Shown in pieces: positions 14,004-30,366 of a stretch of 34,790 nucleotides of DNA. The DNA is from a virus: positions 1-34,790 of IMG/VR virus record IMGVR_UViG_3300005618_000040; one strand, 5' to 3'. How positions within the stretch are numbered: position 1 is the stretch's first letter; each line of letters opens with the position of its first letter. The translations under genes and the position numbers were made by a program. A model generated the notes under the pieces. The model did no database searches, was not told the DNA's origin, and was given only the letters and a program-made list of their open reading frames with translations.

Positions 14004-15056
14004 ATGAGCAACGTAATCAGCAGTGAGAAAAAATCGCCGATCGTGGTTAGCTACGGCGCCGGCCGTGACAGTACAGCAATGCTGGTCGAAATGTGGAAGC
14101 GCAACATGCGGCCGGACGCGATCGTATTCGCGAACGTCGGAAGCGAAAAGCGCGAGACGTACGAGTATATCCGCCTGTTCGATGGTTGGCTCAAGCAACA
14201 CGATTTTCCGGGTATTACGGTTGTCCGTTACGAGCCGAAGCGGGCGCCCTACCGCTCGATCGAGGGCAACATGGTGCTCAACGCGACTCTGCCAGGTGCG
14301 GCCTTCAACATGCATTCGTGCGCGATGAAGTTCAAGATTGAGCCGCAAGTCAAATGGGCGAATCACTGGGCGCCGGCGCGCGAAGCATGGGCGCGCGGTC
14401 AAAAGGTCCGGAAGTTCATCGGGTTTGAAGCCGGCGAAACGCATCGCGTGAAGCGCGCCGACGCGCGGGCTCATTCCGGCAAGGCGAACAAGAACGAAGC
14501 GAAGCGGTACACGTACGAAATGCCGTTGATGGAATGGGGGCTCGATCTGGAAGCCTGCATTGCGAGCATCCGCGAAGTCGGCTTGCCGGTGCCGGCGAAG
14601 TCGTCCTGCTATTTCTGCCCGTTCCAAAAGACTGAGGAAGTCGATACGGCGACGCCGGAAGATCGCGCACGTACGATCCTGATTGAGCTCACGGCCGAGC
14701 CGTACAACACGGCCGTACAGGGCTTGTGGCGCCGGCCGCGGAAAGAAGACGGCCGGCCTGGTTCGATCACCGAGTACATCCTCGAAAAGAAACTGGACTT
14801 CGTACCGCTGCACGAGCTCGCCGATACGATCGTGCTGAATGACAAGTGCCAAAAGGCGCGCACCGGCGTTACGCTGCAGGCGCCGCACTTGCCGGTGAGC
14901 TTGCGCGATCGGCTCACGGCCGCGGGGCACGCCGTACCGCGCGTGGTGACGCCGGAAGCATGGGACGGCCGCGGCAAGGTGTACACCGAATCGCTCCGCG
15001 AAGTGCCGGCCGACGTTGAAGACGAAATGCACGCCGAGCTAATCGCCGCGGCGTAA
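14004..15056 (+). CDS. PP-loop ATPase, PAPS reductase-like (early copy)
   Basis: This 350-residue protein belongs to the adenine-nucleotide alpha-hydrolase/PAPS reductase superfamily. The ATP-binding PP-loop is SYGAGRDS (residues 16-23). Cys106 in HSCAMKFKI matches the position of the functional cysteine followed by lysines. FIGFEAGETHRVKR resembles the GISxDE motif, and CYFCPF (Cys202, Cys205) could bind zinc or an iron-sulfur cluster. Family members adenylate a substrate for sulfur or amine transfer, or reduce PAPS. In phages the substrate is usually unknown, and nucleic-acid modification is a reasonable guess. It is alone in its transcription unit. A second member lies at 29587-30366. Confidence 0.85.
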   Translation: MSNVISSEKKSPIVVSYGAGRDSTAMLVEMWKRNMRPDAIVFANVGSEKRETYEYIRLFDGWLKQHDFPGITVVRYEPKRAPYRSIEGNMVLNATLPGAAFNMHSCAMKFKIEPQVKWANHWAPAREAWARGQKVRKFIGFEAGETHRVKRADARAHSGKANKNEAKRYTYEMPLMEWGLDLEACIASIREVGLPVPAKSSCYFCPFQKTEEVDTATPEDRARTILIELTAEPYNTAVQGLWRRPRKEDGRPGSITEYILEKKLDFVPLHELADTIVLNDKCQKARTGVTLQAPHLPVSLRDRLTAAGHAVPRVVTPEAWDGRGKVYTESLREVPADVEDEMHAELIAAA

Positions 15057-19536: not shown

Positions 19537-20010
19537 ATGTCCAAAAAGCTGGAATTGCTCACGAAGCATATCGCTGCCGACCGGCTTAAGTTGAGTGTCC
19601 GACGTCTAACCGAGCTCGCGGCCGAAGGCAAATTTACACGGCATCGCGCGTTCGATCCGGAGACGCGGCGCGATGCACTGATGTTTGATGCCGCGGAGAT
19701 TGAAGCCTATCAGGGCCGGCGAGAATACGACTCGGCGCCCGCGGGCACGACGGCCGCGCTCGTGACGACGGCGCCGCGGCGGTTGCCGCTCGACGAGTAC
19801 GATATCGACGAACCGGCCGCGGCCGTCACGTTGCGGCCGTGGCTCACGATCGCCGAATCCGCGGAGTACTCGGGCTTGCCGGCGTCGCACTTGCTCGGCA
19901 TGATCGAAGCCGGCGAGCTCGCCGCTCGCGACGTCGGCATCCGGCCGGGTGGACACTGGCGGGTGCGGCGTCTCGATCTGGACGCGATCGAAGGCGAGCG
20001 CGTCAAATAG
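19537..20010 (+). CDS. Regulator with two excisionase/MerR-like helix-turn-helix units
   Basis: This 157-residue protein seems to hold two winged helix-turn-helix units of the excisionase type. The first is ADRLKLSVRRLTELAAEGKFTRHRAFDPETRR (about residues 12-46). The second is WLTIAESAEYSGLPASHLLGMIEAGELAARDVGIRPGGHWRVRRLDLDAIE (about 102-153), a classic HTH_17-like layout with a conserved GGHWRV end. An Ala/Thr/Pro linker joins them. It may regulate early genes or replication; no integrase is present to suggest a true excisionase. The leaderless arrangement upstream is described separately. Confidence 0.8.
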   Translation: MSKKLELLTKHIAADRLKLSVRRLTELAAEGKFTRHRAFDPETRRDALMFDAAEIEAYQGRREYDSAPAGTTAALVTTAPRRLPLDEYDIDEPAAAVTLRPWLTIAESAEYSGLPASHLLGMIEAGELAARDVGIRPGGHWRVRRLDLDAIEGERVK

Positions 20011-20556: not shown

Positions 20557-21714
20557 ATGAGTGTTGAAACCGCACATATGCCGGAATCGCCGGCGATGCA
20601 TGTCGATCGCAAACCGCAACAATCGGAACGGTCGCGCGATCGCGCCGGGTTCGTCAAACTTCGCCGCGGCCGGCTCGAAAAGGGCGCCGCGGAGGGCACA
20701 CTGTCATGGAACTACGAAACCGTGATTCGCGCGTTCGGGCCGATCGGCGCGTGGGCCTTCGTCTACGTGCTCGACCGGACGACGGAAGCATATCCGCCGC
20801 GCGATTACGTCAAGCTCGATCTAGACGATTTGGGCGCGGCCTTGAACGTCGGCGAGCGGCAAGCGCGCAACGTAATCGACACGTTGATCGAAAAGGGCGG
20901 CATTGCCCGCGATCCGGACGACGCCGGCCGCGTGCGCGTATGCCTGGACGCGATCGAGCGGGCGCCGGCGCGGACGCGGACGTACGAGCGGAAGGCCGAG
21001 GCGGAAGTCCGCGGCGCTCAAATGGGGTTGCCGCTCGTGAAAATATTTTCACCGGAGCCGGCCGCGCCGGTGATCGAGGATCGGGCGCCCGAAAGTGAAA
21101 ATATTTTCCCGATCCTGCAGGCGCCGACTGCAAATATTTTCACTGAGCCGGAAGGAAATTGCCGGAAGCCGGAAAGTTATTGCCCGTGGAATTGGAGTTG
21201 TCCACATCTTTCGAGCGGGTTAGCGACACTGCAGACCTATGCAGAAGTGAAATCCTCAGAGTCGTCGTCGTCGGTAGACGTGGACGACGCCGACGCGAAA
21301 AGCGTATTTAGCACAAATTCCTTCCACGCCGAGCTTGCTCGCGCGTTCGCCGGCGCCGGAAAATCCGTGCCGACGGAGCGACAGTCCGCGGCCGTCTACG
21401 ACGCGATCGACGGCGCGGCGTTTCTCGCGTGGCTCACGCCGGCGAAGCTCCTGAAGGCGAACGGGCCGGGTATTCTACCCAGTTGGATTGAGGAATTCCG
21501 TACGTTCACGGCCGCGGCGCAATCGCTAGCGGGCGATCGGGCGGCGGCGCGGTTGCGCGAGCGCGAAGAATTGCACGCACTCGCGGAGCGGGCGCGGCTC
21601 GACGACGAACGGGCGAAGGCGCGGGCGGCGAACTGTGACAAGTGCCACGGTGCCGGCGTCATCAAAACGGCCGGCCGGCCGTCTAAACGCTGCATTTGCC
21701 AGGACGCGCGGTAA
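20557..21714 (+). CDS. Replication-initiator-like protein
   Basis: This 385-residue protein has an N-terminal winged helix domain (about residues 45-135: LSWNYETVIRAFGPIGAWAFVYVLDRTTE, LDDLGAALNVGERQARNVIDTLIEKGGIARDPD) like the helix-turn-helix domain of phage replisome organisers (lambda O/DnaD-type start). A disordered Pro/Glu/Ser-rich middle follows (about 160-260), then a helical part and a C-terminal zinc motif CDKCHGAGVI...KRCIC. Palindromic AT-rich repeats lie inside the coding sequence, as origin repeats do in lambda O. A GAGGAG site precedes the ATG. I infer origin binding and recruitment of host replication proteins, since no polymerase or helicase is encoded. Confidence 0.65.
   Translation: MSVETAHMPESPAMHVDRKPQQSERSRDRAGFVKLRRGRLEKGAAEGTLSWNYETVIRAFGPIGAWAFVYVLDRTTEAYPPRDYVKLDLDDLGAALNVGERQARNVIDTLIEKGGIARDPDDAGRVRVCLDAIERAPARTRTYERKAEAEVRGAQMGLPLVKIFSPEPAAPVIEDRAPESENIFPILQAPTANIFTEPEGNCRKPESYCPWNWSCPHLSSGLATLQTYAEVKSSESSSSVDVDDADAKSVFSTNSFHAELARAFAGAGKSVPTERQSAAVYDAIDGAAFLAWLTPAKLLKANGPGILPSWIEEFRTFTAAAQSLAGDRAAARLREREELHALAERARLDDERAKARAANCDKCHGAGVIKTAGRPSKRCICQDAR
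21037..21206. repeat. Candidate replication origin: AT-rich palindromic repeats and a DnaA-box-like site
   Basis: Three related 16-base sites: a perfect palindrome GTGAAAATATTTTCAC (21037-21052), GTGAAAATATTTTCCC (21095-21110) and CTGCAAATATTTTCAC (21128-21143). They sit in the replication gene, and the first is in a different codon register from the other two, so the DNA itself seems conserved. TTGTCCACA (21198-21206) differs by one base from the E. coli DnaA box and equals the form known in high-GC bacteria. Confidence 0.6.
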
Positions 21715-21730: not shown

Positions 21731-21759
21731 TTGTAACATCACTGAAGGGCTAGTGTATT
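21731..21759 (+). promoter_or_regulatory. Probable promoter of the structured RNA
   Basis: TTGTAA (21731-21736), a 17-base spacer and TGTATT (21754-21759). Transcription would begin near 21766, leaving about 20 unpaired bases before the first stem of the RNA at 21787. Confidence 0.5.
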
Positions 21760-21765
21760 TTCCCT

Positions 21766-21928
21766 ATACCGATGTTAGGTGGGCATGGTATAGGCTTGCG
21801 TGCAGTTACCCGAAATAGTTCGGAGACAAGCCCAACGAGGTTCATCCGTCTGAGGGATGCGGGACTTGTCCGGAAAAGTGCATGTCTATACCAACCGGCC
21901 TTTGCCCTTCGGGGGGTTTCGCGGTTGG
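21766..21928 (+). ncRNA. Folded RNA resembling HEARO/omegaRNA
   Basis: Nested stems can be read directly: GGTATAG (21787-21793) with CTATACC (21886-21892); CGTGCA (21799-21804) with TGCATG (21879-21884, one G-U); CCGAA-ATAG-TTCGG (21810-21823); GACAAGCCC (21825-21833) with GGG-A-CTTGTC (21861-21870) enclosing CATCC/GGATG (21843-21859). A second domain AACCG/CGGTT (21893-21926) holds a CCC-TTCG-GGG hairpin. The single-stranded stretches (CAACGAGGTT, GTCTGAGGG) and this fold recall the HEARO RNA that precedes IscB genes. The 5' 20 bases could be a guide. CTATACC is also present at 21764-21770 and could compete for the first stem. The family match is from memory, not from a model search. Confidence 0.6.
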
Positions 21929-21993
21929 GCTCGGCCTCAAGTACCAACACTGAATCTCTCTGTGTTTCCTCCCCTACATTTGGAGTTTCTGTA

Positions 21994-22377
21994 ATGCCGA
22001 AATACCTCGTTTTCGATCGAGCGGGCGACGCGCAATATCACGTCTCGCCGCATAAGGCGCGCCGCATGGTCGCTGGCGGTCAAGCCGAAATTATGCACGG
22101 CAACGCATTGCGGTTGCTCGGGCCGACCCAGGAACAAGAGCATCCGTGCCGTACGCACACTTCGCGCGGGGGTTTAATGGCGGCGATCGGTCGAAGCCAA
22201 CTCTACACGACCGCGAAGCGTGGCCGGCCGGCGACGACTGAGCATAAGAAAATTTTTCCGGAGGATCGGCCGGCGTACGTCGCCGCGGTGCTCGATCATT
22301 TGGTGGAAGTCCCGCGGGGGTTGTTCGTGTTTTCGCTCGCGCATGAGTGGCGGTCACCGGATCATCGGCGTTCGTGA
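21994..22377 (+). CDS. Small protein with an IscB-type PLMP-like N-terminus
   Basis: This 127-residue protein starts YLVFDRAGDAQYHVSPHKAR, then RMVAGGQAEIMHGNALRLL. This matches the layout of the PLMP domain at the start of IscB/IsrB: a V-x-D strand, a Pro, an AR-rich helix, a G-x-A turn, then a strand ending in I/L-R-L. The PLMP tetrad itself is not conserved. Residues 60-127 (KRGRPATTEHKKIFPEDRPAYVAAVLDHLVEVPRGLFVFSLAHEW) are unlike RuvC or HNH, so no nuclease is present. In IscB the PLMP domain contacts the omegaRNA; here an omegaRNA-like RNA lies directly upstream. GGAG lies 8 bases before the ATG. An internal ATG at 22177 after GGGGG could give a 66-residue second product. Function unknown. 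Confidence 0.6.
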   Translation: MPKYLVFDRAGDAQYHVSPHKARRMVAGGQAEIMHGNALRLLGPTQEQEHPCRTHTSRGGLMAAIGRSQLYTTAKRGRPATTEHKKIFPEDRPAYVAAVLDHLVEVPRGLFVFSLAHEWRSPDHRRS

Positions 22378-22430: not shown

Positions 22431-22619
22431 ATGACGGTCGGCGATCTGAAAAAGGCCATCGCGAGCCTTGACAATTGGCTCGAAATTGAAATAATCGTTG
22501 CCGATGAAGACGCGGACGGCGACGAAGTGGAACGTAGTTTCAATCTCGAAACCGTCACGCGACGAATGGACCCAGATACGGCGCGAGAATACGCGCGCTT
22601 TGAATGCGGCGATGCGTGA
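22431..22619 (+). CDS. Small acidic MTVGDLK-type protein
   Basis: This 62-residue protein starts MTVGDLKKAIASLDNWLEIEIIVADEDADGD, a pattern common in small phage proteins of unknown function. It reads as one helix followed by a beta hairpin, with an acidic loop. AAGGGA lies 11 bases before the chosen ATG. Upstream in-frame starts would lack this pattern. It overlaps the terminase start by 8 bases. Confidence 0.7.
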   Translation: MTVGDLKKAIASLDNWLEIEIIVADEDADGDEVERSFNLETVTRRMDPDTAREYARFECGDA

Positions 22620-29098: not shown

Positions 29099-29590
29099 AT
29101 GAAGGGCAAGCGAGCAGAACGGCCGGAACCGGCCGAGACGAACGAACCCGCGGCGCCGGCCGCGGCGCCCGCGATCGAGCCGGCCGCGGCGCCGGCCGCG
29201 GAACCGGATCTGAAAACCTACCCGCGGGTGACGACGACGGAATCGTACAAACATACGTTCACGTCGATCGAGCTCGCCGAGATTGCCGACAACATGGCGC
29301 GGGCCGCGGCGCGCGTCTACGAAATCGAAAAGCAGAAGTCCGAGCAAGCCGCGCACTATGGCGCCGAGCTCAAGGCGGCGAATCTCGCGGCCGGCGAGCT
29401 CGTGGCGAAGTACAACCAACGGTACGAAATGCGCGACGTGGAATGCCGTATTGAGTATGACAAACCGGAGCCGGGTTACAAGGCGTTCATCCGGCTCGAC
29501 AACGGCGAGAGTTTGAAGGAAATGCGGATGACGGAAGCCGAGAAACAGCGGGCGTTCGTGTTTGACGCCGGCGACGGCAAACCGCAATGA
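29099..29590 (+). CDS. Scaffold-like helical protein
   Basis: This 163-residue protein has an Ala/Pro/Glu-rich disordered N-terminus (1-40), a long helix (SIELAEIADNMARAAARVYEIEKQKSEQAAHYGAELKAANLAAGELVAKYNQRYE, about 52-107), then a beta segment (VECRIEYDKPEPGYKAFIRLDNGESLKEMRMTEAEK). Coiled-coil character suggests assembly roles, but the tail resembles a small unnamed phage domain. It overlaps the next gene by ATGA. Confidence 0.65.
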   Translation: MKGKRAERPEPAETNEPAAPAAAPAIEPAAAPAAEPDLKTYPRVTTTESYKHTFTSIELAEIADNMARAAARVYEIEKQKSEQAAHYGAELKAANLAAGELVAKYNQRYEMRDVECRIEYDKPEPGYKAFIRLDNGESLKEMRMTEAEKQRAFVFDAGDGKPQ

Positions 29591-30366
29591 CCAATAGAGC
29601 GATCACTTGGAGTTACGGCGGCGGCACTCAATCCGTCGCGATCGCCGTACTCGTTGCGGCCGGCAAGCTACCGCGGCCGGATTGGATCGGCATTGCCGAT
29701 ACCGGCCGCGAATCGTCCGAGACGTGGGAGTACACGGATCGTTGGGTGCGTCCGCTCTTGCGCCAGGTGGGATTGGAAATCGAGGTTGTATCCCACTCGC
29801 TCTCCAAGGTTGATCTGCGAAGCCACAAGGGGGACTTGCTGATTCCGGCGTACACCGAAAACGGTGTGCTCGATACGTTCTGTTCGTCGGAATGGAAAAA
29901 ATTTGTGATCCGCCGGCGGCTTCGGGCGCTCGGCTACGGTCCAAAAGCTCCGGTTGCTACCTGGATAGGGATATCGCTCGACGAAATCGGCCGCTGTAAA
30001 CCGTCGGGCGTTGATTGGCAGTCCTACGAATGGCCGCTGATTTGGACGCGGCCGGCGATGCGTCGGTCGGATTGCTACGCGCTGATTGCGGAAGCCGGCC
30101 TTCCGAAGTCGCCTAAATCTTCGTGCGTCATGTGTCCTTGGCGCCGCAATGAACAGTGGGCGCACCAACGGGACAATTACCCGGAGGATCACGAGAAGGC
30201 GTGCCAATTGGACGAGGAAATTCGGGCGAAGGATCGTAGCGGGGCTGTTTGGGTGCATCACTCTCGGGTGCCGTTACGTGAAGCCGATTTGACGGTGCCG
30301 GACAAGCCGCTCTCGCCGCTGTTCGGTGAGGTGGAGGGTTGTGATTCGGGGATGTGCTGGTGTTAA
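29587..30366 (+). CDS. PP-loop ATPase, PAPS reductase-like (late copy)
   Basis: This 259-residue enzyme has PP-loop SYGGGTQS (residues 9-16), DTGRESSETWEYTDRWV, a Cys99 in TFCSSEWKKFVIRRRL, GISLDEIGRCKPS, and CVMCPWRRNEQW (Cys180, Cys183). It ends CDSGMCWC, a possible second metal site. The same motif order as the early enzyme at 14004-15056 shows a shared family, but overall sequence differs widely. It is embedded, coupled, among head genes, just before the protease. The substrate is unknown. Confidence 0.85.
   Translation: MTNRAITWSYGGGTQSVAIAVLVAAGKLPRPDWIGIADTGRESSETWEYTDRWVRPLLRQVGLEIEVVSHSLSKVDLRSHKGDLLIPAYTENGVLDTFCSSEWKKFVIRRRLRALGYGPKAPVATWIGISLDEIGRCKPSGVDWQSYEWPLIWTRPAMRRSDCYALIAEAGLPKSPKSSCVMCPWRRNEQWAHQRDNYPEDHEKACQLDEEIRAKDRSGAVWVHHSRVPLREADLTVPDKPLSPLFGEVEGCDSGMCWC

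What the first reader, a model, noticed from the sequence alone, without database searches (positions are those of the whole stretch)
21731..22377. omegaRNA-like RNA plus a nuclease-free PLMP-like protein in a phage
A compact multi-stem RNA (21787-21928) resembling the HEARO/omegaRNA of IscB lies 65 bases upstream of a gene whose first 45 residues resemble the RNA-contacting PLMP domain of IscB. The protein has no RuvC or HNH part. A promoter at 21731-21759 would start the RNA about 20 bases before its first stem, just where IscB systems carry the guide (21768-21786, ACCGATGTTAGGTGGGCAT). This could be an RNA-guided binder without cutting (a repressor or decoy, in the way TnpB-derived TldR proteins act) or a packaging or control RNA. 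The stems are seen; the family names are from memory; the guided function is inference.
Basis: partly seen in the sequence, partly recalled or inferred. Interest (0 to 1): 0.92.

Follow-up and report, generated by a model that had tools for sequence, protein, structure and literature searches.

The report
Phage leader RNA with PLMP-like protein
A group of uncultivated phages carries a previously undescribed folded RNA directly in front of a small gene whose protein begins with a domain otherwise seen in IscB/IsrB, the RNA-guided relatives of Cas9; the protein has no cutting part, and the pair most likely acts as a self-controlling RNA-protein switch at the head of the phage's DNA-packaging genes.

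Summary
The RNA and the PLMP-like domain are real; the HEARO/omegaRNA identity and the guide are not supported. RNA: a covariance model built only from six related phages finds the window's RNA as its best hit (E 1e-4); with the window added it finds an eighth, more divergent leader (E 8e-5). Sixteen of 31 pairs show changes on both sides; no + strand frame is open in all eight. Rfam HEARO finds control omegaRNAs but none of six phage leaders tested. Protein: IscB/IsrB fill the top nine PDB fold matches (individual E 0.04-0.16), repeated for a relative; profile comparison with PLMP beats 300 shuffles and IF3-N. But there is no RRXRR hit and the PLMP tetrapeptide is absent. RuvC and HNH are missing; the C-terminal half is a conserved domain of unknown function. 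The RNA was found only beside this gene, in the order replication gene, RNA, PLMP-like gene, 62-aa gene, terminase. The Shine-Dalgarno can pair with a C-rich tract in all eight leaders. Best reading: a leader RNA bound by its own gene's product, controlling the packaging operon, like the IsrB PLMP/terminal-hairpin/SD contact without nuclease. RNA guidance is not excluded but has no positive evidence.

The parts
21787..21993 (+). Structured leader RNA, P1 to the Shine-Dalgarno region (core stems 21787-21935)
   Evidence: R1, built from six related phages without the window, hits 21794-21943 at E 1.1e-4; covariation over 8 leaders
21787..21795 (+). P1, 5' strand GGTATAGGC (partner 21884-21892)
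   Evidence: 9 of 9 pairs; replaced by other complementary sequences in L138, L005, L006, L009; weak in L003 and L007
21884..21892 (+). P1, 3' strand GTCTATACC
   Evidence: last two bases could be shared with P3
21825..21870 (+). Central arm with inner hairpin CATCC/GGATG (21843-21859)
   Evidence: MFE fold; inner hairpin aligned to the relatives' ATTGCCC/GGGCGAT hairpin by the covariance model
21891..21928 (+). P3 terminal hairpin, CCAACCG/CGGTTGG, with internal loop GCCTTT opposite TTT
   Evidence: 7 of 7 pairs in this register, sequence changed on both sides against relatives; the MFE prefers a shifted register
21930..21933 (+). Candidate pseudoknot strand CTCG, could pair with loop (C/T)GAG at 21836-21839 or 21851-21854
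   Evidence: Sequence inspection; the bases are nearly invariant, so not tested by covariation
21946..21966 (+). P4 hairpin AACAC/GTGTT
   Evidence: Sequence inspection; GGGAAAA/TTTTCCC occupies the place in L006 (sequences)
21969..21985 (+). C-rich tract CTCC (21969-21972) complementary to Shine-Dalgarno GGAG (21982-21985)
   Evidence: Complementary pair present in 8 of 8 leaders
21994..22377 (+). Gene for the 127-aa PLMP-like protein
   Evidence: Homologues in related phages immediately before terminase
21994..22119 (+). PLMP-like N-terminal domain (residues 1-42)
   Evidence: AlphaFold2 model; Foldseek; hhalign
22150..22287 (+). Conserved C-terminal domain, RTHTSRGG..A..G.SQ.YT....K.I.PED
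   Evidence: Alignments A3/A4; no Pfam match
22431..22619 (+). 62-aa acidic gene, next in the operon
   Evidence: Conserved in L003, L005-L009, L138, L148
22597..23928 (+). Terminase large subunit (start not determined exactly)
   Evidence: Pfam Terminase_6N/6C

Best explanation
The element is a lineage-specific structured leader RNA of the packaging operon together with the small protein that the operon's first gene encodes. The PLMP-like domain binds the 3' hairpins (P3/P4) and the Shine-Dalgarno region of its own leader, as the PLMP domain of IsrB does on omegaRNA, and thereby controls translation of itself and, through the close-set 62-aa gene, of the terminase. Shown: the conserved RNA, its restriction to loci with this gene, the PLMP-like domain (at model level), the SD-complementary tract. 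Inferred: binding, repression, coupling to terminase, and the role of the C-terminal domain.
For: RNA homologous and covarying across 8 distinct leaders, always directly before the gene and found in no TerL-relative locus lacking it. N-terminal fold matches IscB/IsrB best in the PDB for two proteins and in profile comparison. In IsrB the PLMP domain contacts the 3' tandem hairpins, the terminal one contains the Shine-Dalgarno, and its authors propose regulation of expression (PMC9581776). The SD can pair with a C-rich tract in 8 of 8 leaders. Gene order with the 62-aa gene and TerL is conserved.
Against: No binding or expression data. The protein also occurs without a detectable copy of this RNA in L010, L011, L090, L092, L094, L141 and L148. 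The best-conserved half of the protein is not the PLMP-like one, so its main job may not be RNA binding. The promoter and the 5' end of the RNA are unknown.
Confidence: 0.45

Rival explanations
1. The leader regulates without this protein: a cis element that responds to a phage or host factor, to temperature or to the state of translation, or a long leader that steers late transcription (antitermination).
For: The structured RNA sits at the head of the late genes and the SD can be sequestered; the protein exists in relatives without a detectable RNA.
Against: RNA found only where this gene follows immediately; no Rfam riboswitch or leader match; no intrinsic terminator found inside the leader by the scan.
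Confidence: 0.22
2. A packaging RNA or packaging-complex part: RNA and protein act with the terminase in genome packaging, in the way phi29 uses a pRNA.
For: Position directly before terminase in all relatives; the protein family stays next to TerL even where the RNA is not detected.
Against: No structural or sequence link to a packaging RNA (no Rfam hit); many terminase relatives have neither RNA nor protein.
Confidence: 0.13
3. A nuclease-free OMEGA derivative: the RNA is a strongly diverged omegaRNA released from the leader, its 5' end is a guide, and the RNP binds targets without cutting, as TldR does for TnpB.
For: PLMP-like domain and a structured RNA directly upstream, the OMEGA arrangement.
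Against: HEARO model gives no hit at E<=10 in the window and five relatives tested, though it finds 4 of 5 divergent IsrB/HfmIscB loci; no RuvC, bridge-helix, WED or TAM-reading part; no copy of the supposed guide elsewhere.
Confidence: 0.08
4. The PLMP likeness is convergence of a small beta-beta-alpha-beta-beta fold, and the protein has no evolutionary link to IscB/IsrB. This is a question of descent and is compatible with most of the functional readings, so its confidence does not add to theirs.
For: Individual Foldseek E-values are only 0.03-0.2; small viral proteins score as well or better (BFVD best E 0.004); no RRXRR hit; PLMP motif absent.
Against: IscB/IsrB fill the top nine of 350,542 PDB chains for the window protein and nine of the top ten for a relative (both models share one alignment); hhalign score 30.3 against at most 23.6 in 300 column shuffles, and clearly above IF3-N.
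Confidence: 0.4

Closest known systems
OMEGA systems IscB/IsrB with omegaRNA (HEARO, RF02033)
   Same: PLMP-type N-terminal fold; structured multi-stem RNA directly upstream of the gene; hairpins near the 3' end close to the Shine-Dalgarno; candidate pseudoknot.
   Different: No RuvC, HNH or other nuclease part; no PLMP tetrapeptide; RNA not matched by HEARO; no sign of a guide; located in a phage packaging operon rather than a transposon; C-terminal domain of its own.
TnpB-derived TldR repressors (from the finding; not examined here)
   Same: Idea of an OMEGA-type protein without cutting.
   Different: No guide or target found; the protein is far too small to hold a guide-target duplex channel of the known kind (inference).
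Autogenous leaders of ribosomal-protein operons and phage translational repressors
   Same: A structured leader directly before the gene of a small, probably RNA-binding protein, with the Shine-Dalgarno region within reach.
   Different: Binding and repression not shown; RNA and protein families differ from all described ones found here.
Translation initiation factor IF3, N-terminal domain
   Same: Reported structural similarity to the PLMP domain (PMC9581776).
   Different: Weak profile match to the phage domain (hhalign 5-15% against 72-84% for PLMP).

Membership tests
HEARO / omegaRNA (RF02033) | Match to the Rfam covariance model | tested here: not met
   No hit at E<=10 in the window or L003, L005, L006, L008, L009; controls detected
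HEARO / omegaRNA (RF02033) | Located directly upstream of a PLMP-containing gene | tested here: met
   65 bases upstream of the gene; same place in all 8 leaders
HEARO / omegaRNA (RF02033) | 5' guide segment with a matching target | tested here: inconclusive
   No copy of the segment elsewhere in the window, in the fetched loci or, exactly, in viral contigs; host genomes not searched
HEARO / omegaRNA (RF02033) | Nexus pseudoknot | tested here: inconclusive
   CGAG or TGAG with CTCG is possible, but the bases hardly vary and the 3' strand lies after, not before, the terminal hairpin
IscB/IsrB protein family | PLMP domain fold | tested here: met
   Predicted fold only; top nine PDB matches and profile comparison
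IscB/IsrB protein family | PLMP sequence motif / RRXRR Pfam match | tested here: not met
   No RRXRR hit; aligned residues AQYHV in place of PLMP
IscB/IsrB protein family | RuvC nuclease domain with bridge helix (and HNH in IscB) | tested here: not met
   127-aa protein with no such domain in Pfam or PDB sequence searches
Autogenous leader RNA | Conserved structured RNA in the leader of the gene it would control | tested here: met
   that it is transcribed with the gene is inferred
Autogenous leader RNA | Shine-Dalgarno within reach of an RNA structure | tested here: met
   4-base complement 4-9 bases before the SD in 8 of 8 leaders
Autogenous leader RNA | The encoded protein binds the leader and represses it | not testable with these tools
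   Needs binding and reporter assays

The most novel reading that the evidence does not exclude
A nuclease-free branch of the PLMP/structured-RNA partnership in phages: either a remnant of an OMEGA system turned into a guided or unguided RNP for phage control, or a sister of the partnership from which the PLMP domain and omegaRNA of IsrB/IscB arose.
Probability: 0.15. Interest if true: 0.93.

Novelty: new variant of a known kind. Interest (0 to 1): 0.68.

Why it matters
The PLMP domain is known from OMEGA proteins, and its origin and stand-alone function are open; the authors of the IsrB structure suspected that its contact with the 3' hairpins and the Shine-Dalgarno regulates expression (PMC9581776). 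A phage family that pairs a PLMP-like domain with its own structured leader and no nuclease would let that function be tested in isolation. It also supplies an undescribed RNA family in uncultivated phages and a protein domain (SRGG...SQxYT...PED) without any Pfam match.

Tried and rejected
HEARO identity. Any Rfam family (one chance-level hit near the RNA, snoTBR2, E 3.4). Sigma-70 promoter at 21731-21759. A protein-coding explanation of the conservation: no + strand frame is open in all 8. Direct DNA similarity to described phages: chance hits only; protein searches of described phages found nothing useful. IF3-N as a better parent of the fold. The pseudoknot CGAG/CTCG or TGAG/CTCG is plausible but nearly invariant, so it is left as a candidate. 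The palindrome CCTATACC...GGTATAGG at 21764-21794, which would compete with P1, was considered as a switch but is not conserved in relatives. An attempt to count the P3 hairpin on its own MAFFT alignment failed because the register was lost; a hand-made table was used instead.

Full report
Setting. The record is a 34,790-base virus contig from IMG/VR. Around the finding the order is a replication-initiator-like gene (20557-21714; inferred from internal repeats, no family match), the RNA, the gene at 21994-22377, a 62-aa acidic gene (22431-22619) and the terminase large subunit (Pfam Terminase_6N/6C). The best-listed described phages with similar terminases are at most about 55% identical, and no record in the phage collection holds the small protein.

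The RNA is real. On its own the window's fold is only modestly better than shuffles (z -1.44; for the longer stretch z -0.23), so comparison was needed. A terminase search brought related viral contigs; L003-L011 carry a homologue of the small protein just before TerL, and L003 and L005-L009 have a conserved non-coding stretch before it. A covariance model made from those six alone (R1) has its best hit in the whole window at 21794-21943 (22.0 bits, E 1.1e-4; next 0.14). A model with the window added (R2) then found one more divergent leader, L138/L139 (24.6 bits, E 8e-5), again directly before the gene. On the eight distinct leaders 86% of cells pair, 16 of 31 pairs have changes on both sides, and none of 500 shuffles reaches any of the five measures; slid structures fall to 36-49% paired. 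That alignment was fitted to the structure, which favours it; on the six relatives alone the signal is weaker (5 pairs changed on both sides, 34/500 shuffles). G-U alternates occur among the pairs, as expected for RNA. No + strand frame stays open in all eight.

Anatomy. P1 (GGTATAGGC/GTCTATACC in the window) is replaced by other complementary sequences in several relatives and encloses a central arm whose inner hairpin loop carries (C/U)GAG. Then come AAGTGC (absent from L003 and L008), a terminal hairpin P3 with a constant internal loop (GCCUU opposite UU), a conserved CUC-CGG stretch, a further hairpin P4 (AACAC/GTGTT here, GGGAAAA/TTTTCCC in L006, read by eye), and a C-rich tract that can pair with the Shine-Dalgarno in all eight. 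P1 is weak in L003 and L007, and the exact register of P3 in the window is uncertain, since the MFE prefers a shifted one.

It is not HEARO. There is no hit at E<=10 in the window or in L003, L005, L006, L008 and L009. As a control, 30 viral loci with IscB/IsrB-type PLMP domains were fetched: in 18 of them the same library finds HEARO above the gathering score in 11, and in sensitive mode finds 4 of 5 divergent IsrB/HfmIscB loci at E 9e-5 to 0.012 (one, L125, is missed). R1 and R2 give no significant hit at those loci.

The protein. Residues 1-42 are predicted as beta-beta-alpha-beta-beta with pLDDT about 88-92. Against 350,542 PDB chains the top nine matches are all IsrB/IscB (8DMB, 7XHT, 9LIQ, 9K30, 7UTN, 9NVU, 8CSZ, 8CTL, 9K2Z; E 0.04-0.16, probability mostly 0.98-1.00). 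A second model, of the L006 protein, gives the same entries as nine of its top ten; both models use the same twelve sequences, so the two are not fully independent. Against predicted viral structures some small phage proteins score slightly better (best E 0.004), so the fold is not exclusive to OMEGA. Profile comparison with 24 PLMP sequences gives score 30.3 (probability 72%; 84% for the N-terminal part alone) against a maximum of 23.6 in 300 column-shuffled controls; IF3-N, the reported remote relative of PLMP (PMC9581776), gives 5-15%. There is no RRXRR hit and the PLMP motif itself is missing. I take the fold as well supported at model level and common descent as likely (about 0.6), not proved. 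The second half, RTHTSRGG..A..G.SQ.YT....FK.I.PED, is the best-conserved part, has no significant Pfam or PHROG match, and its model is poor.

Linkage. The RNA lies directly before the gene in 8 of 8 distinct leaders. It was found in none of the more distant terminase-relative loci in viral contigs or in bacterial genome contigs, mostly Alphaproteobacteria; those loci have no hit to the protein family either. The protein occurs without a detectable copy of this RNA in L010, L011, L090, L092, L094, L141 and L148. So the RNA implies the protein, not the reverse. The RNA-bearing phages are also the closest relatives, so phylogeny alone could give part of this pattern.

Guide. The 20 bases before P1 in each of the eight leaders match nothing but their own locus, or other copies of the same locus, within 3 mismatches in the fetched sequence. 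Among the six relatives that stretch is moderately conserved (0.54-0.57 mean identity). The supposed promoter is not recognised. None of this proves the absence of a guide, but nothing supports one.

Mechanism. [quoted passage not shown] The phage element has just these parts: a PLMP-like domain, 3' hairpins, a Shine-Dalgarno with a complementary tract, the gene immediately downstream, and the next gene close behind (overlapping in relatives such as L006). Autogenous control of the packaging operon's first genes is the simplest reading (0.45). A leader acting without the protein (0.22), a packaging role (0.13) and a guided OMEGA derivative (0.08) follow. Convergence of the PLMP fold (0.4) is a separate question and compatible with most of these.

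Novelty. In the held library the phrase 'PLMP domain' appears in five papers, four of them relevant, and by title and abstract these concern IscB/IsrB/HEARO proteins. I read parts of two of them, which treat it as a domain of IsrB/IscB; the others were not read. I found no description of this RNA or protein. I call it a new variant of a known kind: a leader RNA plus a probable cognate protein, with an OMEGA-type domain.

Noticed in passing
21038-21145: Repeats of the type GTGAAAATATTTTCAC inside the gene upstream (20557-21714), iteron-like, suggesting a replication origin within the initiator gene.
   Followed up: no
21764-21794 and 21884-21892: CCTATACC-N15-GGTATAGG palindrome before and in P1, plus a third copy CTATACC in the P1 3' strand: an alternative hairpin or operator specific to the window.
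   Followed up: partly
22468-22495: Near-consensus sigma-70 promoter (TTGACA, 16, AATAAT, extended -10) inside the 62-aa gene, just before terminase.
   Followed up: no
L114:271-2826: IsrB-type viral locus with three sub-threshold HEARO matches (271-463, 2280-2472, 2634-2826) and a 72-aa PLMP-only open frame: possibly one element inserted inside another.
   Followed up: no
L141:945-1500: The C-terminal motif SQ.YT...FK.I..ED is followed by a second partial copy (QYTTANERGAVNGFKRIFPED), a possible tandem duplication.
   Followed up: no
14004-15053 and 29587-30366: A PAPS-reductase-like gene (PHROG 424) and a second gene with a similar-looking start (YGGGTQSVA) within one small phage; the second was not searched.
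   Followed up: no
19537-20007: Excisionase/regulator-like gene (PHROG 66, E 3e-8), a hint that the phage may be temperate.
   Followed up: no
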